Below are positions 1 through 15,615 of a DNA stretch of 15,615 nucleotides, in pieces. Where the stretch lies: NCBI RefSeq assembly GCF_000499385.1, contig NW_013654725.1, positions 1 to 15,615 on the forward strand, in the 5' to 3' direction. Positions within the stretch are counted from its first letter, which is position 1. The number at the start of each line of letters is the position of its first letter. The translations under genes and the position numbers were made by a program. The notes below the pieces were generated by a model. It was given only the letters and a program-made list of their open reading frames with translations. It was not told the DNA's origin and did no database searches. The stretch comes from Eimeria necatrix. Lineage: Eukaryota > Apicomplexa > Conoidasida > Eucoccidiorida > Eimeriidae.

Positions 1-183
1 CTAACTGGCGAGTGTGTAACGTTACAACTCGGCAATCACAGTCTTTATTTGTACCGGCTGCTTTTGCTTGAACTTAGGGCACTTGTGATAACAGCGAAGG
101 ATGACGAGAAGGAAACCAAAAATGCGCTTACATCCCCTCTGTGTGTTTCGTCAGAACGTCTAATGTCCCTTTGTCATCGCACT

Positions 184-193
184 TACTTTCTGG
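184..193 (+). repeat. Monomer box TACTTTCTGG
   Basis: One core mismatch; followed by TGG. It lies 254 bp before the next box (438). Confidence 0.6.
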
Positions 194-437
194 TGGGGGG
201 CGCTTTGAGCAACACAATGGATTCCGTCTTTTCCTCATCTTCAGCGATGTTGAGCCTCGCATGGAAACCCTTACTCGAGGTCACACGCTGTCAGATATCG
301 CGGTGAAGCAGTATGATGCCGCTTCTTATTGCCAGTCCCGTCGCACGTTTCACAAGCTTCAACTTCACGTACACCAACAAAAAAAATGATAACGGGTCCA
401 CACAAGTTAATCATGGCCCCATTAGCAGAATCCTTCC

Positions 438-447
438 TACTGCCTGA
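438..447 (+). repeat. Monomer box TACTGCCTGA
   Basis: Exact core with the consensus central bases; next box is 252 bp downstream. Confidence 0.8.
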
Positions 448-689
448 TTCATGGCAATCATAATCATGCAAAGCCCCTGGTTGCCTGCTACACGGCAGTT
501 CGTTCCCCACACTTGAAACAGTGCAAAAGTGTGTTCAAGAACCAATACGAGCCAACCTTTATACAGACGCTTTCGACAGGAGATTTGGCATCTACTGCTC
601 AGCAAACATCTGCTGCGATATCTTCACGATCAACACAGTTCACGGTTCTTGCAAGTCGAACGACAAAAAGTGATTGTTCACGGCGCAGG

Positions 690-699
690 TACATCCTGT
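690..699 (+). repeat. Monomer box TACATCCTGT
   Basis: Exact core; 281 bp to the next main box. An extra copy follows 33 bp later at 723. Confidence 0.75.
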
Positions 700-722
700 G
701 TAATACGCAAGCGCATTACCCG

Positions 723-732
723 TACTAGCTGG
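723..732 (+). repeat. Extra box TACTAGCTGG, out of phase
   Basis: One core mismatch, preceded by CG and followed by CAT as in good boxes, but only 33 bp after the main box at 690. It may be a small local duplication or chance. Confidence 0.4.
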
Positions 733-970
733 CATATGACAGTTGAACACTGTGCCTAACAAAAACGGCCCGTCCGCTAGGCGATGTGGATTCCGGGACG
801 AACGCAAATGCTAAACAGCAGTACAAGAAACGCTTCTGGCTATTATAGCACGAAAGCTTGGCAGGACAAAACGCTGCTTGTGATCTTCTACGCTGGGGCC
901 GCGAGCAAATCGTAGTGCAACAAGCATTTTGCACTTCAGATTTTGATTGATTGACATCATATACGTTGCG

Positions 971-980
971 TACGGCCTGG
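971..980 (+). repeat. Monomer box TACGGCCTGG
   Basis: Exact core preceded by TTGCG; 289 bp to the next box. Confidence 0.8.
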
Positions 981-1077
981 TACAGGGCACGGCAAGGTAA
1001 ATGAGATGCGAATCAGCTTTTTGTGTGTCACCTGACGACCGATGTTCTTAAACTCACATTTTCTTTCAAGAGAAGGA

Positions 1078-1090
1078 CCTCCTATGGAGG
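1078..1090. repeat. Small perfect hairpin CCTCC-TAT-GGAGG
   Basis: Five-base arms at 1078-1082 and 1086-1090 flank a TAT loop. The left arm sits in GACCTCCTAT (1077-1086), which also resembles the box and lies 106 bp after the box at 971. The hairpin is too short for a terminator claim and may be chance. Confidence 0.4.
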
Positions 1091-1259
1091 ATCGGCGTAA
1101 AGAAGCCACAGTACACGAACATTAAAGGCATTGGTGCTCGAAATGCGTTGAGGATGCCTGCTTATCAAGTAGCTTATACGTCAGAGAGTTTAGTCCTTCC
1201 ACCGAATACAAAATGTACACTGATTCAGCAAAACCATAGTGGAGTCTAAAAACCAGGCG

Positions 1260-1269
1260 TACTTGCTGG
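1260..1269 (+). repeat. Monomer box TACTTGCTGG
   Basis: One core mismatch; preceded by GGCG and followed by TGCGAGG, similar to the sequence after the box at 10459 (TGCGAGGT). Confidence 0.7.
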
Positions 1270-2256
1270 TGCGAGGTTCAAGTGAACGGAGCTGAGCATG
1301 CTGTCCTTTAATCTGCGCTACCTCTAGGAAGAGTCGCCTCTAGCAAAAGTCGTCTGTAAAAGCTCCATTTCTACTCATATTTTGCTGAAGGCATTTGGCG
1401 CCAGTGTTTAATTAATTGTTTCACTTCAGCGCAAGTACTTGCATCATTTGGCGGTTTCATTCTTACTCTCTGTTTTACGCGGACTTGACCCGTGCAAAGT
1501 GTTTGGTTGCTCCACAGATGCCAGTTCTTCCTCCACGGAAAGGAGTGGTGCAGCAAAAAGCATCAAAGGCGTATCTTTCTACCAGTGGCGCGAATAGGAG
1601 ATATGAGCTCACTTTCGCACTGATCTCCCGCTGCGAATTCGACACTCTGGATGCATTCCAGCACTTTTGCTCGCATGCCGAAAAATCATCATATCTCAGC
1701 AGCACCTGGAAGTTGAAGGTTCTACTGTGTCACCTCTTAGCCGATAGTTCGCACCAGCTGAATTCTCGTAATGCCATCCAGCAGTTAACTAGTGAACGGC
1801 AGCATCGTGTCCCCCGTGTAGTTTTCACTCCAGTAGAATTGCAATCGAAATGGGGCCTCAGTGGACAAGGTGACTGCGTACAACTTCAAGAGAAATACGT
1901 ATTGGCAACAAATGGCATACGCCCTAGCATTGCCACCTAGTCGCTGACCTAAGGCGTTATCGTGTAAAGAGTCGCGGTGTCACATGCCAGATCCTTTCGA
2001 AAATTCCCATGGCATTATGGGGCAACGTCGGCAATATAAATGGATCTGCAGCTCGGGATAGACAAATAGTCATCATTTGTGGCTCACGTGCTGTGCAGCA
2101 GACCCTCCGTATTCCACAACATGCCTGCGATCCAGGAAAACACTACTCTTTAAGCCGTCACTAACAAGGGGATGCTTCTAAAGAAGCGGCGGCGTGCAAA
2201 AATACTATGCCACCCCTCAGCAGGCAAGTGCTGGAACATCAGGTGGCCATAAATCC

Positions 2257-2266
2257 TACCTCCTGT
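2257..2266 (+). repeat. Monomer box TACCTCCTGT
   Basis: Exact core; identical over ten bases to the box at 11064. Confidence 0.8.
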
Positions 2267-2570
2267 TATGTCCAAAATGCAAGGGTGAGCTTTGCATAAT
2301 CACAAGTTTTCGTATTGTCAGTAAAAGCATATCTTCGGCTTCACTTTAGCAAGCTAAACAGCATGTACTATGTTTGCAAGCTACACAAGATATACCATAC
2401 CGCAGGTAAAAGTGAAGAGCGATGGAAGCGGTTAGGCTTTTGCACATTTCCTCTATCAAGAGGTATGCTGTGCCCCAACGGTCGAGCCACAGAGCTTCAC
2501 CACCACCACAGACCAGCGTCTCCGCAGCTCGTGACAGCAATGCTGTAGCACGAGGGATGCGAATCGCACA

Positions 2571-2580
2571 TACCTCCTTT
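2571..2580 (+). repeat. Monomer box TACCTCCTTT
   Basis: One core mismatch, preceded by GCACA as at 10746; 314 bp after 2257 and 230 bp before 2801. Confidence 0.65.
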
Positions 2581-2800
2581 AAAAATGATTAATTTGTGCA
2601 AACATCAAACACAATTTCACTCTGATGGACGCTGCTACCTCGCATTATGGCTAAGAAAAATGGCAAGCGGAGGTGACACTGATGTTTGGCTCGCACTTTC
2701 CGTGATACGCCATCACCTTAGCTGGTCCCCAGCCATCAGCGCCGGAGCTCAAAACGAAGCTAACAAGCGCGGATGAATAGAGCGGTCTGCAGGTCAATCT

Positions 2801-2810
2801 TACTGCCTGG
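2801..2810 (+). repeat. Monomer box TACTGCCTGG
   Basis: Exact core; identical over ten bases to the box at 11257. Next box is 204 bp on. Confidence 0.8.
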
Positions 2811-3004
2811 TTATTTACTCCCAACAACACAATATTAACCACATGCTCCTAGAGCGTATTTCGGGTCTAAAAGCATTAGGTGTCAAGTTTAGCGACAAGC
2901 AGCAAATCAACACAAGTCTTTAGCTGCAACAACAGAGATAAACTAGCGTTGGCCTAACCACATTCGACGCATTCCAGAGCAGCGGCACTTCAATGCATTG
3001 AGCA

Positions 3005-3014
3005 TACTTGCTGG
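3005..3014 (+). repeat. Monomer box TACTTGCTGG, displaced
   Basis: One core mismatch with the good left flank GCA and right flank TG. It sits about 50 bp early relative to the array phase: 204 bp before it and 308 bp after it. Confidence 0.65.
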
Positions 3015-3312
3015 TGTATAACATAATTGCGCACTCTCATACAAAGCTACAACTTTCCGTCGAGCAGCACCCCGCATGTAGCACCTGCAACACGATATAA
3101 ATATTTAACTTCGCAACTCTACCTTAGAGTCAAAGACAGATTTGCAAACTGCGCGCCTTTGATGGGTTGATGAGGAAATGTGCAGCCCTATGCAGAAAAA
3201 GAAAGGCGCTAATGCCCTTGTGCAAGACACAGGAAAGATGACAAAAACTGTGGAGTGTGTTACTATGCATATCGAATGTCCTCACATGATACGTCCATGT
3301 GTAAGCAGAACG

Positions 3313-3322
3313 CACTTCCTGT
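3313..3322 (+). repeat. Monomer box CACTTCCTGT
   Basis: First base is C instead of T; a second, exact box follows 116 bp later at 3429. Confidence 0.55.
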
Positions 3323-3428
3323 TTGGTACCAATAAATGTTTTGCAGTGGACTATTCACTGGACGTGAGCGTGTGTTTTTGACTCGTTAAAACGCTTCTGA
3401 ACCGTGCACCAGACCCCAAATTTCAGCT

Positions 3429-3438
3429 TACTGCCTGA
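3429..3438 (+). repeat. Box TACTGCCTGA, half-unit position
   Basis: Exact core, identical over ten bases to 438, 10459 and 12084. It lies 116 bp after 3313 and 233 bp before 3662, so one of 3313 and 3429 is a second box within a unit. Confidence 0.75.
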
Positions 3439-3661
3439 TAAGCGTGCTCTTTTAGCCACGTTTGATACTTTTTTTTGTGGTTGTCAGCTGAAGAGCCGCA
3501 CATTGCACGCAGCTTGTCCGGCACAGAGAAGCAGAGTGCAGAGACACCAGGGAGAATTGTTTCTGCTTTCAAGCTGCAACAGGGCGCATGCACTGAGCAG
3601 AACGGCACCTACTCTGCGAATTGCTTTTCATAGGCACCACTTGCCGCCGACGCATCAAGCA

Positions 3662-3671
3662 TACTGCCTAA
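3662..3671 (+). repeat. Monomer box TACTGCCTAA
   Basis: One core mismatch (A for G); preceded by AAGCA. Next clear box is 544 bp on, two units. Confidence 0.7.
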
Positions 3672-4205
3672 GATATCAAATGCACGCCAAGCAAAGACAG
3701 AGGCGGACTTGTTTCCTGCAGGGCATAATTTCAGTGCGTAAAGCTTAGCACTCAAGCACGTATGAAACGCAGCTATCACTTTTGAAGGCACTTAGGACCG
3801 CTCTGGACATCCTAGAGGCAAAGAAGTTTTACCAATCTCTTTGCCATGTTTCTGGATAGCCTGATTCTACATTGAAACAAGCCCTGAGCCTTACACCGCA
3901 AATGCAATGAAACGAAGCTGGAGCGACTGCGCGAGCAGCAAAGGCGAAGCACACCGTCTTAGTTTTGACATCTTTCGTTCCAATGATGAATGTAAATCAT
4001 TCTGTGCCAGTGGCGTCCCGCACCATTCACTAAATTATTTGTCAAGCTAAGCACCATAACAAACAAGCTGTGAAGGCATGCAATAGGACTAGTCCTGGCG
4101 ACGATCTTGATATTGGCCTCTTGAGCCTTCAGCATCACTTAGGGATTTCACCGGAGCGTGCTCTCTTTTAGGTGCTCAGGCCACCGTTAATATGGTAAGT
4201 GAGCA

Positions 4206-4215
4206 TACTTCCTTT
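4206..4215 (+). repeat. Monomer box TACTTCCTTT
   Basis: One core mismatch; preceded by GAGCA. Confidence 0.65.
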
Positions 4216-4726
4216 GATATAGGAACTTAAAACACACGTTTTAACTTTTTGTCCCCTACACACGCAGGCGGTCTATCTGTTTGCGCTCGCTTTGTCGCGA
4301 TGCAGTTGCGAAAGATCATCAACTTGTATATGTTTTTGCAGCAATTGCGTCATATGTCCGTCCAAACGCAGTAAAGCCACTTCTTTGCAATTTTCGTTAA
4401 GCCGATAAACTTCAACTGATGTTTCAAGCCTTTGGGTTTACACTGCTAGCGGGACATCATCGCCACTGCATCGCATGGCATGCTACAACACACTGCCTTT
4501 TACATGACATTTCTAGGGCAGCATCTGCCTAGTTCGTTTGCTCTACATCAGTTGAATTCAATTCACTGACTGCTGAGGACACAAGCGCGCGAAATAAACG
4601 CGTCTCGCTTTGGGTGCCTCTGCTTTGCTCGCATTGAATAGTCTCATGGCTATATCAAAGGTGCCCTTGAAATTCATTCTGACATGCCCCTGATTTCTCC
4701 CAACTGCGTCAAGACAACAGGGGCCT

Positions 4727-4736
4727 CACCTCCTGA
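4727..4736 (+). repeat. Monomer box CACCTCCTGA
   Basis: First base C instead of T; 252 bp before the box at 4979. Confidence 0.6.
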
Positions 4737-4978
4737 CGCGCGGCAGTCTCGCTTGGTGCAGCAGCTGCATTTTTAGTAACTTGACGGTCGCAACTATCTA
4801 ACATTCCCCAACGGCAAGAATAACAAGTTACCAACATGCCTTGAAGTCTGCACAGGGCGGCCCTCAACTCCTTCAGTTGCATCCTTGTACGCAAAAGGCA
4901 ATTTAGCTCAAAGCAGGGTAGCAAACAACTCAGCTGCTTCAAGAGTACTTCACGTTTGTACTGCATGGCGATAAAGCG

Positions 4979-4988
4979 TACTTCCTGA
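4979..4988 (+). repeat. Monomer box TACTTCCTGA
   Basis: Exact core preceded by AAGCG; identical over ten bases to 9167. First copy of the 39 bp local duplication. Confidence 0.8.
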
Positions 4989-5017
4989 GAAACGTAGCTT
5001 GATCAACCCTGCGTGTC

Positions 5018-5027
5018 GACTTCCTGA
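5018..5027 (+). repeat. Box GACTTCCTGA, second copy of local duplication
   Basis: First base G instead of T; 270 bp before 5288, so it fits the array phase. Confidence 0.6.
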
Positions 5028-5287
5028 GGGACAAAACTTCTAAACTTGATGGCTCAATTCATCAAACACAACACTAGGTTTCTACCAAAGAGGGCCACGC
5101 CAAATTGCTCACATATGCAAATGAAGAAGCCGAGTTGAAGGAAAGTTTTGGAATGCAGTCAAAATGATATTTATCGAACGCGTTGCACTCCTAAATACTC
5201 TGATGTGACTTTTTGAGTCATTTTATTTAGACAATTCTGTAGATGCACAATGCACACAGCACGGTGAAGCCCAGCCAACCGACTCCT

Positions 5288-5297
5288 TACCGCCTGG
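5288..5297 (+). repeat. Monomer box TACCGCCTGG
   Basis: Exact core; 256 bp to the next box. Confidence 0.8.
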
Positions 5298-5543
5298 TCA
5301 GCGTGTATATTACGAGTTTTCACTCTACGAAAGCAACTGCCGTGCTATGCACCAGCCCGTAAACCACCTTCAACCGCTCTGCCATATCCAAAATGCAGAA
5401 TTCTGTAAAATATCCTCAGGTCAAAAGATTTGGAGAAATTAAGGCCCTTCTTAAAGATTGCCTACACCTCATTGCCTTTCCGTGCAGTATCAAAGCTAAG
5501 CTGCCTTTACTCCTAAGTTCATGTGTAATATGGAAGGCAGGCG

Positions 5544-5553
5544 CACTTCCTAA
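5544..5553 (+). repeat. Monomer box CACTTCCTAA
   Basis: Two core mismatches, accepted because of the GCG left flank and steps of 256 and 287 bp to its neighbours. Confidence 0.5.
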
Positions 5554-5830
5554 TTAGAAAAGCACCGTCTCAAGGCAAGTTCTGTGTCTGTCGCATTTTT
5601 TAATACCCGTACATCCACCAAACAAGTGGTCAGGAGAGAGCACCGAAAAGCTTGCGATAAACGAAGATTGCTCTCTAGGAATCCAAAGAGTGTGGATGCA
5701 CTCTGTCGCCGCAGCGTTACTAGCTGCTCAAGTTGTTGCCGTACAGGAGTTGTGCGTCAACGTTGCAAAAGAATACTAGACTACTGGAGCATGTTACTCC
5801 TATTCACATGCGTATCCCAAAGAGCAAGTA

Positions 5831-5840
5831 TACGTCCTGT
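5831..5840 (+). repeat. Monomer box TACGTCCTGT
   Basis: Exact core; identical over ten bases to the box at 10746. Confidence 0.8.
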
Positions 5841-6109
5841 CACATGACAACTTCTCCAAGCTTTGTGCCGTGTCAGCAAGCCCCATCCGCATGACCCACA
5901 AATGCACTAGGCTCTACGCCGCTAAACGAGAAGTTGCAAATGCGGGGGAAATGGCCTAAAGATATACCGCAATACCGCTCTCCCCCCATATCGCTGAATC
6001 AGTTCAATAAGACGTAAAAAATAATCAAAATGCGCCACTTGATGCTGGCGCAATGCCTGCGTGAATGGGCTTAAAACCACGCATGCATCCTCATATGTGC
6101 TGTGCTCGT

Positions 6110-6119
6110 TACATCCTGC
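6110..6119 (+). repeat. Monomer box TACATCCTGC
   Basis: Exact core, 279 bp after 5831. It is the last exact core before the decayed stretch that ends at 8024. Confidence 0.75.
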
Positions 6120-8023
6120 ACTGACACTTTACCTGTACCAACTGCCATATTTTTAAACCTACTCCCTTCCCCTAAAAACAAATTCAGAAAAATGCATGCG
6201 AAATATGTTGTGTCAAGGGCCTGAAAACGATGTTTCGTAAGGGCAATTTTTTTCTTTGTGTTGTATACTCGCCATGTTACCGGACCAAAAATGATCTGAA
6301 TTTTTGCCCCCTTGAGGCATATTTGGATTCTTGGTAAGCAGTTGTTGTGAAAGGTAGACTGATGCATGCGTCATATCCCATGAAAGGAGATGATCACTCT
6401 TTCTGTGTGTTTGAAAACAACTGAACGCCAGAACGCTTTTGCTTTTGCAGGTCTGCTGCTTCTAGTGTCTTCACTGTATAGCGTGCAAAAGCTGCCTGCT
6501 TGTAAAAGCGTTATGGCACCCAGTCTCACTCCCTGGTCCATTTGAAGCTCGTACACGTGCGCATGGTTCTCTTGCGGCCGCATTACTCAACACGGCTGTC
6601 CAAAGGGCATAGCGTCAGGAAAGGCCGGATTATATTGCCGTGAAACACGCGCACCTCAATAGTGCTTTGCTCTTCAGAATATTCTAGAGTTTTCACGTCC
6701 CGAGTCTTTTTTCTCAGTAGTGCATAAATCTTGGTGCATACTGAAAAAGCACAATACGTCACATTATGAAGATCAAGGGCCCGAAGGAAATTTACCGCGC
6801 ATTCGCAACGGCTTGAAACATTTTCCTAAGTAGCGAACAAGCTAAGGCACACGCACACGTCCACGCAGAGTGTATTTTCAGCTCACAGCTCAGCAAAACT
6901 GGTACTCACCCCTTTTGGACAGCCCACTGTAAGTCTCCTTTGCATAGCGCCTCCCCTTTGTCGCAATGTCTCTCCATCGCTGGTCGTTGTATCACGCCTC
7001 ATGAGCTTTAAAGAGACGAGGCGGGCAAATTCTCACCCCACGAGGGCACAACGAAAACACGAAAATAAGTAAGCAAAACGTATGGCAGCGGATTCGCTCT
7101 TACTTTTGAGATGAAGGTAGATTTAGGGCTGATGGTGATCATTTTTCAGAAGCTCTCTTCAACCCAGCCATAGGATAAAATCGTGCCGGCGTTGGTTCAC
7201 CTATCTGATGAGCTTGTACGCCTATTTTCTTGCCAAGGTACAATACATTTACAAGATTTGTGGCGGCATTTTGCAGAAGCAGCCTTCAGCGTGTCAGTGC
7301 CGCATCACTTATGAGTTTGTAGTTCTATTTTCTCGTGACAGGTACGCGATATCATCGGCGCGCAACTTGTGAACAAAGCGCCTTTGTAAACTCGGCGTGG
7401 CTTTCTAAAAGCTATACCGTTGATGCTTAAAAATGTTCGGCAAACCTGTGTCGTTCTGCTTCTCCTGAAAACACGTGTAAGTTGCCAGAAACCTGCATGC
7501 GAGGTTGCTCTCGTACGGTCTGAGACAGGGCATGTCTGGGCAACGACGGTGTGTGTGTTCTTATGAAGCAAAATCACACTACAACTAGCAGTGGAAGGCC
7601 CTTGCATAAAGTACCATTGAAACAAAAGCAAGCACGCTCCCCCAAACATCGTTCTTTACTAAGTGCTTGGGCATGTTTAGGATGGGCCAGCACTGCTGCA
7701 TGAAAGTGAGAAGCCAGCCGAGTTTTCCACTTGCAGGTGATACCCTGTTCAGAGGCCTACGCCGGATGCTAGGCGCAGTGACTATTATAAGGCAGCTACA
7801 TGAGATGGTAACGCAATGTCACCACTCTCAAACCAGAAAGGCTTTATAACTGTATCTTTTTTTAGCCTCATGGGGTAGCTAACAAGAACATCAGCTAGAA
7901 ATAGCTACGACCCAATCTAACCAGCTGCGGAAATTCTTTAGGCATGGCAGCTTGCTCTAAAAGAATGTTGTGTGTTGAAAAACAACAGGTTGACTGACGT
8001 GCATCACGTTAAGTAGCTAGTCT

Positions 8024-8033
8024 TACAGCCTGA
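8024..8033 (+). repeat. Monomer box TACAGCCTGA
   Basis: Exact core; 260 bp to the next box. Confidence 0.8.
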
Positions 8034-8283
8034 AATATTGTTCATGCATTTAGTCCCCGTCTGCCGACTATCAGAAGCAGTTTGCTTGGCCCAGTGTCAA
8101 CATCTTCATCAAATTGGACTTCTTTGCGGATTTTACCGGCAATCTGATGTCTAAGAAGGTCAGCAGCATTAGAACGATTCGATATTAGCTTTTTTCAGGA
8201 GCGTTTAATACACATGCATAGCGGCGAGATTAATACGACTGGCTCCAATAGAAATTTTGTTTGAAGTGAGCCATTGTTAAGCA

Positions 8284-8293
8284 TACTAGCTGT
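8284..8293 (+). repeat. Monomer box TACTAGCTGT
   Basis: One core mismatch, flanked by AAGCA and TGCATGTTAC. The right flank recurs 270 bp later beside the box at 8554. Confidence 0.75.
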
Positions 8294-8553
8294 TGCATGT
8301 TACTTTACTGCTTCCAAATATATGCTTGATTCATAACAAAAATGAGACATCAGCAATGTTTTGCAAGCCAAGCGAGAGGCGCACGTCCAGCATTGTTGAC
8401 AAGAGAACCCATACAAGACATAAGAACAACGGGCATCACATTGGTGTGTGAACTACATCTGTGTGACACACTATGAGACGCTCAAATGCGCCCCATGGAT
8501 TTCTGTGCATACCTTAGCAGGACTCCTGTCCTTCCAGTTATTCGTATTAAACG

Positions 8554-8563
8554 TACCTCCTGA
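8554..8563 (+). repeat. Monomer box TACCTCCTGA
   Basis: Exact core flanked by AAACG and GGCATGTTAC. A weaker box-like sequence follows 120 bp later at 8674 (CACTCCCTAATG). Confidence 0.8.
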
Positions 8564-8876
8564 GGCATGTTACCTCTTCTCAAGCATACGCCTTCCTCAG
8601 CACGTGGTTGAATTGTGCCCACATGCATTCGAAACCGGGGAGCCGCAATGCATAAGCTACAAAACGGCAATATCACTCCCTAATGATCCTGCACTGGCCT
8701 TCTTTCTCTACACACCTCGCAACAACGAGCAGATGTTCAGTGGCTTTTTGATAGTAGCTTCGACATGCATGTTTCACATCAATCGCACCCTCTGTTGCAT
8801 GGCAAGAACTTTTAGTCATCTGATGAGCTCTGTTTCGCTGGTGTGCTGAAGCTAAACACTGCTTACTCAGACATGT

Positions 8877-9043
8877 TTGTTTCTGTTAGACACACAGCAG
8901 TTGAAAAAGTGCGCAACGCAGATATTCCCAAGTGGAGCAGCAATATTTTGTTCGCTAGCTTGTTTCTGTTAGACACACAGCAGTTGAAAAGGTGCGCAAC
9001 GCAGATATTCCCAAGTGGAGCAGCAATATTTTGTTCGCTAGCT
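8877..9043 (+). repeat. Recent 83 bp tandem duplication
   Basis: Copy 1 is 8877-8959 and copy 2 is 8960-9042, and the match continues one base to 9043. The copies differ at one position, A at 8908 against G at 8991. Each copy runs from TTGTTTCTG-type sequence through a run of A after CAGTTG to TTCGCTAGC. The near identity contrasts with the strong divergence of the surrounding monomers, so this is a young event, probably slippage or unequal exchange within one monomer. It carries no box. Confidence 0.97.
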
Positions 9044-9166
9044 ACCACTGCAATTCTAGTAATTTCCAAGGCATTACTTAATCTCTAGACACCTACACTG
9101 ATAGACCAAACTTTATAGAACACCTAGAACAAACGACGGTTATTTATAACCTTTAGCGCAAGAACG

Positions 9167-9176
9167 TACTTCCTGA
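9167..9176 (+). repeat. Monomer box TACTTCCTGA
   Basis: Exact core preceded by GAACG; identical over ten bases to 4979. Confidence 0.8.
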
Positions 9177-9413
9177 AACATAGTATTCACATCCGGCTGC
9201 AATAGAGCACAGGTTTCTCCAAAATCGGTGTTCCGCGAGCAAAACAAACTGACGGCCACATCTGGTAAACGTAGCAGTGAGCAGAAGAGGCAGAATTCAT
9301 CCCGTGGGGCAGCATGGACTGCTTGCTCGTATGATACTAAAGAATTTACTGCCATCTAAATTGCGTGTAATCCTATTCACGACGTGAGCTGCCGTCACTA
9401 GAAAGTAACACCA

Positions 9414-9423
9414 TACTGTTTAT
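9414..9423 (+). repeat. Degenerate monomer box TACTGTTTAT
   Basis: Left half TACTG kept and right half mutated; accepted on position (247 and 273 bp to its neighbours). Confidence 0.45.
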
Positions 9424-9686
9424 ACGCATAAAAGCACGATTCCATAGCACGCTCACGGCCTGCATCAACCATAGCCTTTTACGTGTAAGCAAGCGTTCCA
9501 TGCGTCACACTTGAGTATCACGACAAGGTTCTTTAGTAACAAGCGTGAATCACAATCACACTTAGTGCCTCGGGGCTCTGCCAGCACTACTTTCCTCAGT
9601 TTTTTTCAGTCCATACTTAAGAGACGATATGCACGACTGATGCATCTGAGATATTGCTTCGCAGCAAGGCACTGCACAACCAAGCC

Positions 9687-9696
9687 TACCGCCTGA
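9687..9696 (+). repeat. Monomer box TACCGCCTGA
   Basis: Exact core; 266 bp to the next box. Confidence 0.8.
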
Positions 9697-9952
9697 TCAG
9701 CGCATTTCACCTCTTGGACCTTCTGGCATGCTGCTGCTAAATCATCACAAACCGGTTCATGCACGTTTGCAATGTTAGAGATGCAATCACAATTTGGAAT
9801 GCAGCAAAGCATGCCCGCGATGCACCACTATTTCTTTTCCTTGCTGTTGGTGGTCTTCAGTTATACTTAACGTCAGTGCTGCCTCTTGTTCCTTAGAGAG
9901 CCTTTGACTTTTTCCTGATACAGCACCATGCGACCTTCCAACTTCGTTGACG

Positions 9953-9962
9953 AACATCCTGC
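9953..9962 (+). repeat. Monomer box AACATCCTGC
   Basis: First base A instead of T, otherwise as at 6110; followed by GAG. It fits the phase. Confidence 0.6.
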
Positions 9963-10458
9963 GAGCTCATTAGACAACAGTGTGCTTAAAACAAGCCCCT
10001 GCTAGCAAAGCCATCAGCGCAACTGCAACGTGTAAATCGCTTAGCAAACTCGATCTCCGACAATAAACGGCGAAGTTAAGTTCGGCCTAATAGCAGAAGA
10101 ATAACTCCATATACTATTTTTCATTAGACGCTGCAGCAAAAGCAAAGTCGAATTCCTCAAGTGCCCTTAGTTGGCTGATTGCGAATAGACATTCATAATC
10201 AGGCGCAAAATATTAGAACCTCACTATGCTTCATTGCACGAGCCTGCATCAAAAAAGCAACCTTACTCTCTGTGGCATTTTATTGTAGATGGTCATACAA
10301 TATTTAGATTTCGTGCTTAGGATGAAGCTTGCCTGGCTGGCTAGAATGCCATACGCAAATGCAGAGAAACTGTGCTACTTCACTTAACGTGCTTCAAACT
10401 CTCTACGCCTTTTTAACTTTAGTTTCCATCTTTCATTGCGTAATCAGGATATGAAACG

Positions 10459-10468
10459 TACTGCCTGA
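10459..10468 (+). repeat. Monomer box TACTGCCTGA
   Basis: Exact core preceded by AAACG and followed by TGCGAGG; one of the best copies. Confidence 0.85.
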
Positions 10469-10745
10469 TGCGAGGTAACAGGGGAGAACCGCTGTGCATC
10501 TTCGCAGCAGTTGCAACGATCAACCTTCAGCAGTTCACTTAGTTGGTGATTATCAGTTGATGATCGCGAATTTGGACAGATCTGCGCAACTTACACATTT
10601 GAAACGCTTCCTTTCCTTTATGCGCATTTACACCGTTGGCTCCTTGTTGCGCGAAATTCAGCGCACTGCCACGGGCGCAGAAATGCGCCGTGCGGCCAAT
10701 CGTTAGCTAAACCTTTGCCCCTTTACCGGTTATATGAACAGCACA

Positions 10746-10755
10746 TACGTCCTGT
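10746..10755 (+). repeat. Monomer box TACGTCCTGT
   Basis: Exact core; 287 bp after 10459 and 318 bp before 11064. Confidence 0.8.
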
Positions 10756-11063
10756 TGTAGAATGTTTTACTGCAGCAAATTCGCACCTACATCCCATACC
10801 CATGTCGTTTCCCCAACACGTGCTTCCTGCCACCTTTCCTTCGGGACAAAAATCAAATAGAAGCCTAGCAACATTGCATGACGCGGTGAAGTAGCTGTTC
10901 AAGTCACAACTTGCGGCTATAACACTAACTCAAACGAGAATCCAAGCATGCGCTTTGTTGCGTACGCTCTGATGTCACCAATCCTTGCTCCCACAGTGCT
11001 AGATTTCAGCTCGTAACTAAGGACGATATTGGGTTTCACCTGCTTCAAAAGCAAAAGTAGCCA

Positions 11064-11073
11064 TACCTCCTGT
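11064..11073 (+). repeat. Monomer box TACCTCCTGT, displaced
   Basis: Exact core followed by TGCACA. It lies about 55 bp late for the phase: 318 bp before it and 193 bp after it. Confidence 0.75.
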
Positions 11074-11256
11074 TGCACATAGTTGTGTTCCCTCTTTATT
11101 TGGTTGGAAACCATCCTCAGGTGAACAAATACACGCAGATACTGGTCCATATCATGCAAAGCAATTGTTCGTCGCAAATTTTCGTATAGCAATATGTCTT
11201 CTTTCCTATGCCTGCACATCAGATGCTGCGTAAACATCCAGCCCAAAAAGCATCCA

Positions 11257-11266
11257 TACTGCCTGG
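11257..11266 (+). repeat. Monomer box TACTGCCTGG
   Basis: Exact core followed by CATGAGG; 280 bp to the next box. Confidence 0.8.
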
Positions 11267-11536
11267 CATGAGGCACTTCCATGCGGTCTGATGTAGGAAT
11301 TATTCCTGCTCGTCTGTACGTTTTGCCTGTCCTATACGACAATATATTAGCCAAACGCCAGCCACTGAGCACCGGAACACACAGTCCATGAAGTACCACA
11401 AATGCACGGATTGTATAGTGCTAGTATATTGTCCTGGTGACGAATACCGAATACAACCTGAGCGTGCATGTAGGACAGCAAAAACACTTGTTTTCAGTGC
11501 TGGCCTTCGAGCTTTTGTGCATTTCTGTAACACGCT

Positions 11537-11546
11537 TACAGTCTGG
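11537..11546 (+). repeat. Monomer box TACAGTCTGG
   Basis: One core mismatch; 263 bp before 11800. Confidence 0.65.
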
Positions 11547-11799
11547 GCGTCGGTAAGTGAAATTCTGCAGCGCATAGGCCTGCTTGAAATCCAAATTATT
11601 GGGTTTCTCATTCAGGAGGAACCTGCAAAAATCCCTGTCCAGTCGTAAACAATCGTTAATTATGAAGCGTCTTGCGTGACACGCATCAGTTGCTTGACGA
11701 ATTGAAAGCGCCTGCAGAAAAAGGGCATTAAAAAAGCCAAACAGAATGGCAAACCAACTCGCAGCTTACATGTGGTGTTCCCTGCCTTGCTATTTTGCG

Positions 11800-11809
11800 T
11801 ACTTTCTGA
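11800..11809 (+). repeat. Monomer box TACTTTCTGA
   Basis: One core mismatch, preceded by TTGCG and followed by GGC; 284 bp to the next box. Confidence 0.7.
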
Positions 11810-12083
11810 GGCTTGATACTACGATTCTATAGTGTGGCTTGCTGGCTTACCTCAGGCCGCCAACAATTCATCGTTTCATGATTGCTTTGGACACAAATAA
11901 GTGGGCATAAAACAAACCAGAACAAATGCGTTCAAATACTGTTGTTCTTTGCAAACCCTCTCCTCTTGCGTAGGCCACTTATTCTCGTCAACATGCATTT
12001 CAGATTGCAAGACTACAACACGTGGGCCGTGCTTCGATGCATAGTAACAGCACCGTTTGTTCACAGCTTCTTTAAACTACGCA

Positions 12084-12093
12084 TACTGCCTGA
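12084..12093 (+). repeat. Monomer box TACTGCCTGA
   Basis: Exact core preceded by ACGCA and followed by GGAT. Confidence 0.8.
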
Positions 12094-12221
12094 GGATTGG
12101 AACTACATCCTACCTGGCGTTTGCTTCTATCCAGTAATCTACAGTGCATAAGGGCAATATGTTTCTACTAAATTGCTTATATCTGATGAACGCTTGAGGC
12201 TGTACACATGGAAATACTGAC

Positions 12222-12247
12222 ATGCAGCGGCATGCTGCATGCTGCAT
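12222..12247. repeat. Short GCATGCT direct repeat overlapping a hairpin
   Basis: From 12230 to 12247 the heptamer GCATGCT occurs twice and is followed by GCAT. The 7-base inverted repeat ATGCAGC at 12222-12228 and GCTGCAT at 12234-12240 can pair around a five-base loop. Only this one copy is seen at this monomer phase, so it is a local feature and not part of the satellite consensus. Confidence 0.7.
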
Positions 12248-12609
12248 CCCTTTTCCACAATGCTGCTGAGGAACGCTAATAATGCCTTCTTAGCAAAAAC
12301 GTTCCGTGAAAAGCTTAACCACCGCAGACAAAGAGAACGCCTGCACCCTAGTGACACTCACATGCTAACGCACGGCACTCTCTTCCTTTACCACAAATGC
12401 TCATTTGCAAACAAACGATCACATTCCGCCACCCCAAATTCTCCAAACTCGAATGTACTTAAGAAAAAACACAAGCATATGTGCGACAAGCTGTCGAAGT
12501 GCCTGGTTTGCTTTCCCTGTCTTCAGAATATTCGGACATAGCTGCACACCAACTGGACTGCTACATATGGTGCAGGGGCTTAGTGTCTTGCTTGCAGACG
12601 AACAAGACG

Positions 12610-12619
12610 TACCGCCTAT
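12610..12619 (+). repeat. Monomer box TACCGCCTAT
   Basis: One core mismatch, preceded by AGACG; 526 bp (two units) after 12084. Confidence 0.65.
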
Positions 12620-12729
12620 ATTGTCGAGAGTATTTCATTTCCTACTCCAGAATATTGCGCAAAAGTCATGAACAGTTTTATGCGTCGCACCCGCGCTGGG
12701 GGAAATGTTAAATTGAAGCAAACGAGTTG

Positions 12730-12739
12730 TACTGCCGGC
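12730..12739 (+). repeat. Extra box TACTGCCGGC, half-unit position
   Basis: One core mismatch, 120 bp after the main box at 12610 and 127 bp before 12857. Confidence 0.5.
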
Positions 12740-12856
12740 ATTGTTGCTTCTTTCCCAGCACATTTAGCGTGTCAAACAATTAATTACCTGCCTTTAAAGC
12801 CGCCAACTACTCAGATCAAGTAGCGGATCGCTGGGAAATTTCAGTAAAGGCAACCG

Positions 12857-12866
12857 TACAGCCTGG
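12857..12866 (+). repeat. Monomer box TACAGCCTGG
   Basis: Exact core preceded by AACCG; 255 bp to the next box. Confidence 0.8.
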
Positions 12867-13111
12867 CACACAGCGCTCCTCTAGAGTTTCCAGGAGATCC
12901 ACAGAACATTTCAGTCTTCCTCATGAGCCGCATTATAAGCAATACTAGACACAAACGAACGACACAGTGATGGCTCATCTTTCAGCAGTGTGGCCCGTAT
13001 TCGGTGTCAGATGGCACACTTCAGCAGTTCCGGACGACTTCACAAATTGACTAGAACCATAACGGTATGAACTGCGATTTTGTTTCAGACCTTAAGCTTT
13101 AAGAATAACCT

Positions 13112-13121
13112 CACTAACTGG
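13112..13121 (+). repeat. Monomer box CACTAACTGG
   Basis: Two core mismatches, accepted on position 255 bp after 12857. Confidence 0.45.
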
Positions 13122-13658
13122 TTCGATGGGTTTTCGTTTATCCGCGATAGAAGCTTCCCACCTGCCTGTCTGGAACAACTCTGTTCTGCATTTTGTCAAC
13201 ACCTTGAAAGCTGAAGGCCCTTGCAAAGCACAAGTCACAGCCGTCGATGCGGCCCGCAGATGCACCAGCAACTTTATGAGGAAAACCATCTCTAATGCGC
13301 GGCTGCGTATTACGAGCAAACACTCCTGGCATGCGGCGCCGAGCATTCGGGCGTTCGCTTTTGTGAAAACTGATCGCAAGCCTTGCGGATGAAGCGCACA
13401 GACTGAGAAGTAACGCGTCCACGCAGCGGCGACCAAAACATCCCTAGCGTAGGTCCTTCCACGCGAATTGCTGAAGCCCTAGCTATTAGTAAAGGCTATT
13501 TATAGCATGACACGCTACAGGGGTGCGTGCGCACACCAGTATGGCCAGATTTCTTCAGTTGAAATGCAGCAAGTCGCTATGCCAATTCAGACTATGTATT
13601 CAGCGTTTAGTTGCTCTCAAAAGCCACTGCTGTGCACATATTGCATTGAGGGCAAGCA

Positions 13659-13668
13659 CACTGCCTGC
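13659..13668 (+). repeat. Monomer box CACTGCCTGC
   Basis: First base C instead of T; 252 bp before 13911. Confidence 0.6.
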
Positions 13669-13910
13669 AGCGTGGGTTTTCAACGTCTTGAATGCACCCC
13701 GAACTTGATTTGCGGAAAAAATATAAATCAAGACGTCGTGGGTGAAAGACTGTCGAATCGTTGAGAAATACGTCAGAATTTTTTTCAGCCACGACGTTAG
13801 ATTGCCTTCACGCTTTTGCGAGTCGTAAGGATGCCTCGTTGTTTCACGTGTTTATTTACTATTTGCCGTACTCTGGGCACCAACAGTGTTCGAAGCATAG
13901 TGGTCAAGCA

Positions 13911-13920
13911 TACTATCTGA
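13911..13920 (+). repeat. Monomer box TACTATCTGA
   Basis: One core mismatch, flanked by AAGCA and TGCACAG. The right flank recurs at 14177 and, as TGCACA, at 14436. Confidence 0.8.
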
Positions 13921-14425
13921 TGCACAGCATTGATCTATGCCACAAACAAGAAGTTGCTCCTAGTATGTAGGCAGATACTTGCGGCGTCTACACCCGCAGG
14001 AAATTAAAAGCGAAAATTTTGGGCGAATAGCAGGACTACGCAAGCCATCGGCACTGCTGCAAAGCAACACCGCTTAAACATGTGCAAATTCACCGAATGA
14101 GCATTTGCGAGCGCAACTATGCAAGACCAAATCATGGATTCAATGAACTGTCATACCTACTATGCAGATATACGATGCACAGAAATAATCTAGGCCAAGA
14201 GTAGGGAGCCGTCCATAGTGTGTAAGCAGATGCTTGTGGCTTCTTCATCCTCAGGATAAATCGTAAACGAAACAGGTAAGAATATAAAACACCTGCGAGT
14301 TATGCTTGCAGTGCCGCAACAGGCCACCATGTGCCGTGTCGCACATTCAATACGAGAGCATTCGCAAGCGCAATGGCCACAGATGACCAAACCTGCAATA
14401 CCAAACGTAGAATACAACATAAGCG
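13911..14425 (+). repeat. Two adjacent monomers that align directly
   Basis: Monomer A (13911-14167) and monomer B (14168-14425) can be aligned by eye along much of their length. GATGCACAG is at 13919-13927 and 14174-14182 (offset 255). The block 13961-14001 matches 14216-14256 at 33 of 41 positions (offset 255). The block 14101-14116 matches 14358-14373 at 14 of 16 (offset 257). The differences in the 41-base block are five transitions and three transversions. The box of B is broken: only its TGATGCACAG-like right side remains. This pair is the strongest direct evidence that the spacing reflects a tandem repeat rather than scattered sites. Confidence 0.85.
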
Positions 14426-14435
14426 TACGGCCTGA
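14426..14435 (+). repeat. Monomer box TACGGCCTGA
   Basis: Exact core flanked by AAGCG and TGCACA; closest of all copies to the full consensus. Confidence 0.85.
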
Positions 14436-14686
14436 TGCACAAAACTTTTCCACCGGCAAAGTTCATTCACCTGCACCGAGAAGATAATGCATTCCACGGT
14501 CTACTTGCCTTCACAAACCAGCAGCAAAAGCACAAATGTGGCTTAACTGTGTGTCAGGAAGTGTATTGATTAGGTAAACGCTGTTACCTATCCCAAAGGA
14601 AACATCGCCTGCGGTTAGCTTAAGTATAATCTCAGCCCTTACGTTGCTTGCAGCCACTGTTGAAGGTTTACAAACAAAATTAATCG

Positions 14687-14696
14687 TACTCCCTAA
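14687..14696 (+). repeat. Monomer box TACTCCCTAA
   Basis: One core mismatch, followed by TGAG; 261 bp after 14426 and 260 bp before 14947. Confidence 0.7.
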
Positions 14697-14881
14697 TGAG
14701 TGGCGTCTCTATATAGTAAGCATGCGCGGTGACGTCTTTTGCAAACTTGATGTGGCATATCCCAGACAGCAGTGCCTTCTTTTATTCGGAAGTGTTCACT
14801 ACCGTGCCCTGGCTTGGAGCGCGCTGTCTCGAAACGGGCCCAATGACGCTACTCTTCCGTGCTTGATCGTTATGGCTAGCG

Positions 14882-14891
14882 TACTAACTGA
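14882..14891 (+). repeat. Extra box TACTAACTGA, out of phase
   Basis: One core mismatch, with the good flanks TAGCG and TG. It lies 65 bp before the in-phase box at 14947. Confidence 0.5.
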
Positions 14892-14946
14892 TGTAAAACC
14901 GTCCATATTTCCACGAAGCAAAGTCGCTTTCACCTCATAAGCGGTC

Positions 14947-14956
14947 TACTAGCTGT
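14947..14956 (+). repeat. Monomer box TACTAGCTGT
   Basis: One core mismatch; identical over ten bases to the box at 8284. Confidence 0.7.
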
Positions 14957-15469
14957 CCGTAAGTTCTCTATAATTTTTATTCCCGTACACACACAGCATA
15001 CAATGCCAAACAACAATGCTATTATGTTCAATGTACTGCCCCTACCTTTTCTGACATGTTGTGGCACTTCATGCTTACTGTGCAATTGATCCCACTGTTC
15101 TGACGTCAAAAATACGTTTTGTGTGATTAACGGCAATATGTACTCTACTAGCTAGTGCAAAACACTTTTCTACAGCCACAGCGCATTTTCACGAGCCAAG
15201 CAGACAACCCTCTGGATGGCCCATGCGAAGCAGTGCGTGCAATACCTACAAGTTGCATGATTAGCTAACCCTTTCAAGCATCCGGTCTTCCAATCAATTG
15301 TTTCATGCAGCAAGCCTGACAGATTAAATGGATATTCACTGGAAGGGATATTTGCATAATACAAGTAGAAGGAAGCAAGTATAATTACACAACTAAAAAG
15401 CATCAAAATGTTTCGTGCACAAGTGTCAACATCAAATTTCCAACTCGTGTTCCCCAACACACTGCCTTA

Positions 15470-15479
15470 CAAGACGGCT
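15470..15479 (+). repeat. Monomer box CACTGCCTTA
   Basis: Two core mismatches, in phase two units after 14947; last box in the window. Confidence 0.5.
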
Positions 15480-15615
15480 CAACAATCGAAGTGCATGCTG
15501 CATACTTCTGCAACGTCTTTAAGGCCCAAACGCTTCGGTACGCAGGCAAGCACAAAGCGTCATTGAATGATCTATTTTGGATCTGTGGCTGCAGCATTTG
15601 CTGCACCGTACAGTA

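What the first reader, a model, noticed from the sequence alone, without database searches (positions are those of the whole stretch)
1..15615. The whole window is one very old satellite array of about 262 bp monomers
A box with core TACNNCCTG marks nearly every step of about 262 bp from end to end, with double steps where one is lost. Pairwise similarity between monomers is mostly too low to be obvious, so ordinary repeat masking could miss the array and label it unique intergenic DNA. Satellites usually stay homogeneous through unequal exchange. An array that keeps its phase but loses its sequence suggests a region with little recombination or turnover.
Basis: partly seen in the sequence, partly recalled or inferred. 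Interest (0 to 1): 0.75.

Follow-up and report, generated by a model that had tools for sequence, protein, structure and literature searches.

The report
Ancient satellite with a surviving box
The window is a very old tandem-repeat array from an Eimeria-like parasite in which almost everything has mutated away except a short, one-stranded DNA box, and the same box turns up in other non-coding stretches whose remaining sequence shows no relation, as expected of a protein-binding site.

Summary
The periodicity is real. In the window the core CNYACNNNCTG occurs 42 times, all on + (3.8 expected on both strands). Decoded steps average 263 bp, SD 28. Base autocorrelation outside the box shows nothing decisive. 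A cyclic profile trained on two other contigs recovers in-phase spacer homology in the window: +153 bits, rotated spacer columns at most +36. So 'very old ~262-bp satellite' is supported, though spacer identity is barely above controls (35.0% against 33.4-34.1%).

In three sets the same box positions almost never change while neighbours drift, as in a protein site. No two cores lie under 100 bp apart (0 of 205 steps; 30 expected). Genome-wide the looser core has 4,073 places, scrambled controls 1,284 and 1,685.

Best reading: a CENP-B-box-like or SPE2-like binding element in turning-over arrays of Eimeria gene deserts (centromeric or subtelomeric, undecided). Protein, chromatin state and chromosomal position were not shown.

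The parts
1..15615 (+). degenerate head-to-tail satellite array, about 58 monomer slots of ~262 bp; the whole contig
6120..8023 (+). most decayed stretch of the array; slots at 6355, 6652, 6925, 7223 with lower posterior, then 7514 and 7776
182..192 (+). box core CNYACNNNCTG at a slot
436..446 (+). box core CNYACNNNCTG at a slot
721..731 (+). box core CNYACNNNCTG at a slot
969..979 (+). box core CNYACNNNCTG at a slot
1258..1268 (+). box core CNYACNNNCTG at a slot
1462..1472 (+). box core CNYACNNNCTG at a slot
1750..1760 (+). box core CNYACNNNCTG at a slot
2083..2093 (+). core match not at a decoded slot
2255..2265 (+). box core CNYACNNNCTG at a slot
2799..2809 (+). box core CNYACNNNCTG at a slot
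3003..3013 (+). box core CNYACNNNCTG at a slot
3311..3321 (+). core match between slots
3427..3437 (+). box core CNYACNNNCTG at a slot
4725..4735 (+). box core CNYACNNNCTG at a slot
4977..4987 (+). box core CNYACNNNCTG at a slot
5286..5296 (+). box core CNYACNNNCTG at a slot
6525..6535 (+). core match between slots, in the decayed stretch
7512..7522 (+). box core CNYACNNNCTG at a slot
8022..8032 (+). box core CNYACNNNCTG at a slot
8282..8292 (+). box core CNYACNNNCTG at a slot
8552..8562 (+). box core CNYACNNNCTG at a slot
8784..8794 (+). core match; the decoded slot is at 8864
9165..9175 (+). box core CNYACNNNCTG at a slot
9452..9462 (+). core match; the decoded slot is at 9414
9685..9695 (+). 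box core CNYACNNNCTG at a slot
10262..10272 (+). core match; the decoded slot is at 10222
10457..10467 (+). box core CNYACNNNCTG at a slot; lies in the only unmismatched AARCRYACTKCCTGRTG of the genome
10744..10754 (+). box core CNYACNNNCTG at a slot
10961..10971 (+). box core CNYACNNNCTG at a slot
11062..11072 (+). core match between slots 10963 and 11257
11255..11265 (+). box core CNYACNNNCTG at a slot
11535..11545 (+). box core CNYACNNNCTG at a slot
11798..11808 (+). box core CNYACNNNCTG at a slot
12082..12092 (+). box core CNYACNNNCTG at a slot
12545..12555 (+). core match; the decoded slot is at 12610
12855..12865 (+). box core CNYACNNNCTG at a slot
13110..13120 (+). box core CNYACNNNCTG at a slot
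13395..13405 (+). box core CNYACNNNCTG at a slot
13657..13667 (+). box core CNYACNNNCTG at a slot
13909..13919 (+). box core CNYACNNNCTG at a slot
14424..14434 (+). box core CNYACNNNCTG at a slot
14880..14890 (+). box core CNYACNNNCTG at a slot

Best explanation
The window is part of an ancient satellite array in an Eimeria-like genome. Most ~262-bp units carry a gapped box, C-N-Y-A-C-N-N-N-C-T-G, always on the same strand (shown). The rest of the unit has drifted almost to randomness, but in-phase homology is still detectable across three contigs (shown). The same box marks other long stretches without long ORFs, always or nearly always on one strand per contig, whose spacers show no detectable relation to this satellite or to each other, and neighbouring boxes keep at least about 100 bp apart (shown for the contigs sampled). 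Because spacers turn over while six box positions stay nearly fixed, the box is most likely kept by purifying selection as the recognition site of a sequence-specific DNA-binding protein (inferred). That protein would be an ApiAP2 factor, as PfSIP2 is on SPE2, or a CENP-B-like/transposase-derived protein, and it would coat gene-desert heterochromatin (inferred). Arrays renew themselves by local tandem duplication of box-bearing units (seen in a few young repeats), then diverge while keeping the box (inferred). Whether the deserts are centromeres or subtelomeres is not decided.
For: Strand-pure box excess: window 23/0, C929 0/30, C961 0/15, C798 0/85, C485 28/0, against 0.1-2.0 expected per strand (all but the window were reached through box pattern hits). 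Position-specific constraint: with up to 2 mismatches allowed anywhere and background subtracted, C1, Y3, A4, C5, C9, T10 are mismatched in -2 to 7% of sites and R2, T6, C8 in 21-36%, in all three sets. Spacer homology within the 262 family: held-out gains 153, 134 and 94 bits, rotated maxima 36, 27 and 36. None detected between families, one marginal value apart. Minimum spacing: 0 of 205 core-to-core steps under 100 bp in eight contigs, 30.4 expected at random. Genome-wide CNYACNNCCTG 4,073 places, against 1,355 (reversed pattern), 1,284 and 1,685 (scrambled patterns that keep CCTG). In the first 100 places, adjacent cores within 3 kb are on the same strand 30 times, opposite 6 times; 10 and 5 without the three densest contigs. 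Window: no ORF over 174 aa, no Pfam match in the six ORFs tested, no Rfam or tRNA match.
Against: No binding protein, chromatin mark or transcription was examined. The box could be kept because it promotes duplication rather than through a chromosomal role. Constraint was measured on sites that still resemble the box; with 3 mismatches allowed, where about half of the 262-family and C798 sites are background, the contrast in the 262 family weakens (C1 0.18, A4 0.15, C5 0.17, T10 0.16 against T6 0.24, C8 0.26, G11 0.32). Alignment to the model itself inflates box identity: 0.723 in the window core, but 0.567 and 0.566 in reversed and opposite-strand controls. By the distance score, periodicity in C929, C961, C798 and C485 alone does not exceed random placements. 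Window halves predict each other only weakly (33.3 v rotated maximum 32.7; 40.4 v 26.0). A ~131-bp module outside the 262 family is not established: in C798, with its young 131-bp repeat dropped, 6 pairs lie at 120-139 bp against 2.4 expected (p 0.044) and 260-279 bp is not special (p 0.20); genome-wide, box pairs 118-148 bp apart (139 v 13 control) are hardly more numerous than pairs 318-348 bp apart (119 v 20).
Confidence: 0.55

Rival explanations
1. Plain relic: a satellite that decayed neutrally in a low-recombination region; the box is only its last readable part and has no role.
For: Residual in-phase homology along the whole monomer; no array-specific homogenisation; step SD 28 bp needs no active spacing.
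Against: Even decay predicts similar mismatch rates at the single-letter box positions; observed -2 to 4% at C1, A4, C5, C9, T10 against 24-28% at T6, C8, G11 in the 262 family with up to 2 mismatches. Core identity to a held-out consensus is 0.72 (controls 0.57) against 0.35 in spacers (controls 0.33-0.34). Same box where spacers show no relation.
Confidence: 0.2
2. The box is a duplication or exchange motif: units are born by recombination or transposition between boxes, so every unit starts with a box; no heterochromatin role is needed (as proposed for Box 1 of Meloidogyne satellites, PMC3694981).
For: Four young tandem repeats of 126-247 bp carry about one core per unit: 131x8 (exact core in 5 of 8 copies), 134x1.9, 126x2.1, 247x2. 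The minimum spacing of ~100 bp fits modular growth.
Against: Of the 11 tandem-repeat rows seen in the seven sources scanned that gave any, six carry no core, among them the window's own 83 bp x2 and a 134-bp repeat in C501, and one 25-bp repeat doubles a core. It does not by itself explain why old units with nearly random spacers keep the six positions (43 of 57 window slots).
Confidence: 0.2
3. The box acts in RNA: the deserts are transcribed from one strand over tens of kb and the box is a processing, binding or termination signal.
For: Strict strand purity, for example 0/85 over 55 kb in C798.
Against: Head-to-tail amplification gives strand purity for free. No Rfam family. Transcription could not be tested.
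Confidence: 0.1
4. Chance or base composition.
For: The genome is rich in TGCA and CAG, which raises weak profile scores on both strands of a HAAR-coding contig (C1084).
Against: Opposite-strand, reversed, rotated and scrambled controls; C1084 and C1033, which carry long ORFs, have no core on either strand, nor do 3-kb pieces of C8, C30 and C67; C233 has one.
Confidence: 0.01

Closest known systems
CENP-B box in primate alpha satellite, and Box 1 of Meloidogyne satellites (PMC3694981; abstract and passages seen)
   Same: A short gapped motif conserved in satellites whose remaining sequence differs; in Meloidogyne, Box 1 survives between two satellites sharing only 32% identity.
   Different: The letters differ: TTCGNNNNANNCGGG (recalled) is not enriched in the window, 28 v 23.9 expected with 2 mismatches. 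Here the monomers within one array are also nearly random, and the box recurs in many contigs.
PfSIP2/SPE2 arrays of Plasmodium falciparum subtelomeres (PMC2829057; passages seen)
   Same: Apicomplexan; hundreds of copies of a short gapped site (777 predicted, 94% in heterochromatic chromosome-end domains), many in sense-oriented tandem arrays, bound by an ApiAP2 protein.
   Different: Other motif: GTGCNNNNNGTGC (recalled) is not enriched in the window, 22 v 20.3 expected with 1 mismatch. Subtelomeric position not shown here. [quoted passage not shown] falciparum.
E. tenella Hi-C centromeric regions (PMC8515493) and gene-poor subtelomeric and internal regions (PMC9131526); passages seen
   Same: Long intergenic stretches (putative centromeres average 35 kb, 15-74 kb); the deserts have high CpG, and one of their two clusters is said not to be enriched for any particular repeat family. 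CpG observed/expected here is 0.83-0.99 in the box contigs against 0.46 and 0.69 in two ORF-rich contigs.
   Different: The passages seen describe no box or hidden satellite; position on chromosomes is not testable in this fragmented assembly.
TgTASL regions and centromeres of Toxoplasma gondii (PMC4008256; abstract and passages seen)
   Same: Gene-poor, oriented regions without sequence similarity to other silenced regions but sharing a hidden signature.
   Different: That signature is trinucleotide bias, not a strand-pure box; TgTASL copies are ~70% alike.

Membership tests
Satellite DNA (tandem array) | Head-to-tail units of one length, same orientation | tested here: met
   Step 262.9 +- 27.9 over 55 single steps; 42 of 42 cores on +
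Satellite DNA (tandem array) | Units homologous along their length | tested here: met
   Held-out profile gain above all 8 rotations for each of three contigs; weak between window halves
Satellite DNA (tandem array) | Homogenised within an array (concerted evolution) | tested here: not met
   Intra-contig similarity -17.76, inter-contig -17.61
CENP-B box satellite | Canonical CENP-B box letters (recalled) | tested here: not met
CENP-B box satellite | Binding by a CENP-B-type protein at centromeres | not testable with these tools
   no ChIP or binding data
SPE2/SIP2 array | SPE2 bipartite motif (recalled letters) | tested here: not met
SPE2/SIP2 array | Subtelomeric position, HP1 heterochromatin | not testable with these tools
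   unordered contigs; 22,404 telomere-like (TTTAGGG)4 matches, many internal to contigs in the part listed
Eimeria centromere (Hi-C type) | One localised intergenic region per chromosome | tested here: inconclusive
   Box stretches of 15.6, 19 and 55 kb fit 15-74 kb, but 2,400-2,800 excess cores suggest more DNA than 15 x 35 kb (inference)
Known structural RNA or tRNA gene array | Rfam or tRNA match | tested here: not met
   window; four loci

The most novel reading that the evidence does not exclude
A gapped 11-bp element (CNYACNNNCTG) has outlived the satellites that carry it: it is the one constant of otherwise unrelated, strand-polar arrays over a few per cent of an Eimeria genome, and it specifies heterochromatin or centromere identity through a dedicated, still unknown DNA-binding protein.
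Probability: 0.3. Interest if true: 0.85.

Novelty: new variant of a known kind. Interest (0 to 1): 0.62.

Why it matters
Gene deserts and putative centromeres of Eimeria are described, in the passages seen, as intergenic or gene-poor DNA without a named repeat (PMC8515493, PMC9131526). A strand-pure box that survives while its satellite dissolves would give them a sequence handle, let ancient satellites be found where ordinary repeat finding sees unique DNA, and name a bait for the protein. It also offers a natural test of whether selection, rather than homogenisation, keeps motifs in satellites.

Tried and rejected
Base autocorrelation with boxes masked: nothing decisive at 262 bp. Plain DNA search with a 431-bp window piece: only itself. 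Rfam, tRNA, Pfam: nothing. A second motif inside the spacers: width 20 gave 162.7 against null 131-146, but the real data had 40 starts and the null 15, so it is not used. A first, less smoothed profile gave small held-out gains (+12, +39). Half-length (131) model on the 262 family: worse than 262 (1601.8 v 2104.9-2184.4); the exact length is not resolved, since three starts at 262 differ as much as the lengths do. A ~131-bp module as a general feature: I held it for a while and drop it. CENP-B and SPE2 letters: not enriched. Polarity relative to contig ends: inward on C200, C482, C485, C458, C519, C798; outward on C501 and C894; C502 unclear; so it does not decide between centromere and subtelomere (places, the first three lists capped at 100; lengths). 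Expected core numbers were too low by a formula slip (one C too many); those are used.


Full report
What the window is. The window is contig C1085, bases 1-15615, of a held genome of 44,016,600 bases in 1,148 contigs. Two sister contigs code long runs of Ala, Gln, Ser, Leu and Cys from CAG-type repeats (C1084 and C233), and the genome holds 22,404 overlapping matches to (TTTAGGG)4. CAG-coded amino-acid runs and telomere-like TTTAGGG repeats are described for Eimeria in PMC9131526 (passages seen). The only hit of a 521-aa ORF on C1033 was weak (E 6e-4) and to an Eimeria mitis protein, 58% identical over 15% of the query. I therefore call it Eimeria-like; the species was not determined. The window has no ORF over 174 aa, and six of its ORFs gave no Pfam match.

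The observation. TACNNCCTG occurs 22 times, all on +, against 1.34 expected. With the refined core CNYACNNNCTG there are 42 matches, all on +, against 3.8 expected on both strands and at most 11 in 200 shuffles. Distances between the 42 matrix sites pile up at one, two, three and four times ~262 bp; the score at 262 bp is 64.0 against a maximum of 40.2 in 300 random placements. By the same measure the other arrays taken alone are not beyond the random maximum (C929 20.3 v 39.7, C961 17.6 v 23.0, C798 18.8 v 24.6, C485 4.5 v 9.5).

Are the spacers homologous? Not visibly by simple means: with boxes masked, weak maxima of base identity at lags 255 and 780 stand beside unrelated ones at 102 and 888, and Tandem Repeats Finder reports only an 83-bp x2 and a 16-bp x2 repeat. 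By phase-aware means, yes. Forty spacers (22 window, 11 C929, 7 C961) align better in phase than with one partner rotated by half, by 1.67 +- 0.22 score units, 37 of 40 positive. A cyclic profile model of 262 columns trained on two contigs and tested on the third gains, from its spacer columns alone, +152.8 bits (window), +134.1 (C929) and +94.4 (C961). Eight rotations of the same columns give at most +36.1, +26.8 and +35.5, and reversed columns are negative. The effect is faint per base: held-out consensus identity in window spacers is 0.350 against 0.335-0.341 rotated and 0.334 reversed. In the box core it is 0.723 against 0.567 reversed and 0.566 on the opposite strand, where alignment alone finds chance boxes. 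Window halves predict each other weakly. Lengths 246-270 were tried; 266 and 258 fitted best with one start (2180.3, 2151.7), but three starts at 262 gave 2104.9, 2184.4 and 2107.0, so the length is not resolved more finely. Similarity between contigs equals similarity within contigs, so these three contigs may be one ancient array or several that stopped homogenising long ago.

The array in the window. Decoding, with a model trained partly on the window, gives 58 slots with mean step 262.9 and SD 27.9 over 55 single steps. All 16 blocks (15 full kilobases and a 615-bp end) score positive, 31 to 105 bits. The stretch 6120-8023 is weak but still in the array. CNYACNNNCTG sits at 34 of 58 slots, and 8 further matches lie off the slots.

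The box outside this satellite. Pattern searches led to other contigs. In C798 CNYACNNCCTG occurs 85 times on - and 0 on + in 55 kb, in C485 28 on + and 0 on - in 10 kb, against 2.0 or fewer expected per strand. Their spacers do not score with the 262 model (C798: +2.2 bits per kb on the box strand, +4.3 on the other; C485: -2.8 and -0.1), and no family model transferred to another family beyond its rotated control, with one marginal exception (C798 model on C1036, 47.6 v 46.6). C798 keeps some in-phase homology between its own halves at 262 columns (65.0 v 51.7; 85.8 v 74.7); at 131 columns one direction passes narrowly and the other fails (25.2 v 23.5; 48.9 v 72.3); C485 shows none. Smaller samples of other contigs agree on strand purity: C647 14/0, C955 9/0, C1036 0/9, C561 6/0, C458 0/6, C502 5/0, C519 0/2, C633 11/0, C501 0/6, C1140 3/0, C615 2/1 and C200 0/8; all were reached through box hits. 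C1086 and C1084, taken only for their contig numbers, gave 3/1 and 0/0; C1033, C8, C30 and C67 gave 0/0 and C233 1/0. As a sample not chosen by me, the first 100 places of the genome-wide core search (contigs C1-C25) have neighbours within 3 kb on the same strand 30 times and on opposite strands 6 times; without C2, C3 and C12 it is 10 and 5. In the box loci checked, the longest ATG ORFs are 100-244 aa, against 409 and 510 aa in the two ORF-rich loci; the longest, in L010 of C929, is listed under things noticed.

Spacing. Outside the 262 family no fixed period is established. C798 without its young 131-bp repeat has 6 pairs at 120-139 bp against 2.4 expected (p 0.044) and nothing special at 260-279 bp. 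Genome-wide, box pairs are in excess at 249-279 bp (118 v 12) and 118-148 bp (139 v 13), but also at the off-period 318-348 bp (119 v 20), so these counts show clustering, not period. What does hold is a minimum: 0 of 205 core-to-core steps in eight contigs are under 100 bp, where random placement would give 30.4. A 25-bp young duplication in C633 (L035), outside those eight, breaks the rule.

Constraint inside the box. Counting all sites with up to two mismatches anywhere in CRYACTKCCTG, minus reversed-strand background, the mismatch fractions along C R Y A C T K C C T G are .03 .23 .04 .04 .03 .28 .13 .24 -.02 .03 .26 (262 family).03 .21 .03 .04 .07 .28 .15 .26 .04 -.01 .19 (C798) and .02 .28 -.01 .03 .05 .36 .17 .35 .01 .04 .11 (C485). 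The same positions hold and the same positions drift in three sets whose surroundings show no relation. With three mismatches allowed, background is about half of the 262-family and C798 sites, and the contrast weakens in the 262 family. R, Y and K are two-letter positions, so their fractions are not directly comparable with the others.

Amount. CNYACNNCCTG has 4,073 places, against 1,355 for the pattern read backwards, and 1,284 and 1,685 for two scrambled patterns that keep CCTG, which matter because the genome is rich in CTG. The excess is thus about 2,400-2,800. At the 1.5-2.8 cores per kb of C798, the window and C485 this would be roughly 1-2 Mb, more if sparser contigs like C647 are typical (inference).

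Turnover. Of 11 tandem-repeat rows in the sources scanned, four have units of 126-247 bp with about one core each: 131 bp x8 (C798, 91%; exact core in 5 of 8 copies), 134 x1.9 (C485), 126 x2.1 (C501), 247 x2 at 99% (C200); one 25-bp row (C633) also carries cores; six carry none (L038 gave no row). So box-bearing units still duplicate locally, but not every duplication is box-based.

How it may work. I take the box as a protein recognition site kept by selection in arrays whose spacers drift and which renew themselves by local duplication. Shown: strand purity, position-specific constraint, recurrence without detectable spacer homology, minimum spacing, age. Inferred: protein, heterochromatin, selection rather than birth bias. 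Literature parallels are PfSIP2 on SPE2 and Box 1 or the CENP-B box; the letters of neither are enriched in the window (both motifs recalled). E. tenella centromeres and gene deserts are plausible homes, but position could not be tested.

In print? Searches for Eimeria with centromere and satellite, E. tenella with centromere and genome assembly, E. maxima with E. acervulina, chromosome-level and repeat (no paper), Eimeria with gene-poor, subtelomer and repeat and Eimeria with satellite DNA listed no paper whose title or abstract start describes such a box; I looked into PMC8515493, PMC9131526 and PMC4008256 by passages only. Only open-licence papers are held, so this is not proof of absence.

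Noticed in passing
window 8877-9043: A recent 83-bp tandem duplication (98% matches) inside the old array, with no CNYACNNNCTG match.
   Followed up: partly
L022 1945-2987 (C798): Eight copies of a 131-bp unit, 91% matches, exact core in 5 of 8 copies: a young satellite inside an old box stretch.
   Followed up: partly
L036 (C501 1-2500) and C485 57-207: Both contig ends share the same tandem sequence around the box, so the two contigs are probably neighbours on one chromosome.
   Followed up: no
L020 4816-6026 (C798 ~84.8-86.0 kb): Tandem ORF-like repeats of about 345-350 bp at the edge of the box stretch.
   Followed up: no
L045 539-1032 (C200 ~250.5-251.0 kb): Two 99% identical 247-bp units, one core each, near the end of a 258-kb contig.
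   Followed up: no
C3 1622-6343 (contig of 13,292 bases): Eleven cores on one strand within 4.7 kb: the densest run among the first 100 places.
   Followed up: no
L035 (C633 22800-26800): Read by eye, a tandem of roughly 600 bp (GC 0.55), with CNYACNNCCTG 11/0 on one strand; Tandem Repeats Finder is limited to 500 bp and lists only two 25-bp rows.
   Followed up: no
L010 6256-6996 (C929): A 246-aa reading frame (GTG start; 244 aa from ATG) inside the second array, longer than others there; no family search was run on it.
   Followed up: no
box variant ACTTCCTG: One common box form resembles a vertebrate ETS-factor site (recalled); probably coincidence, since I recall no ETS factors in Apicomplexa.
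   Followed up: no
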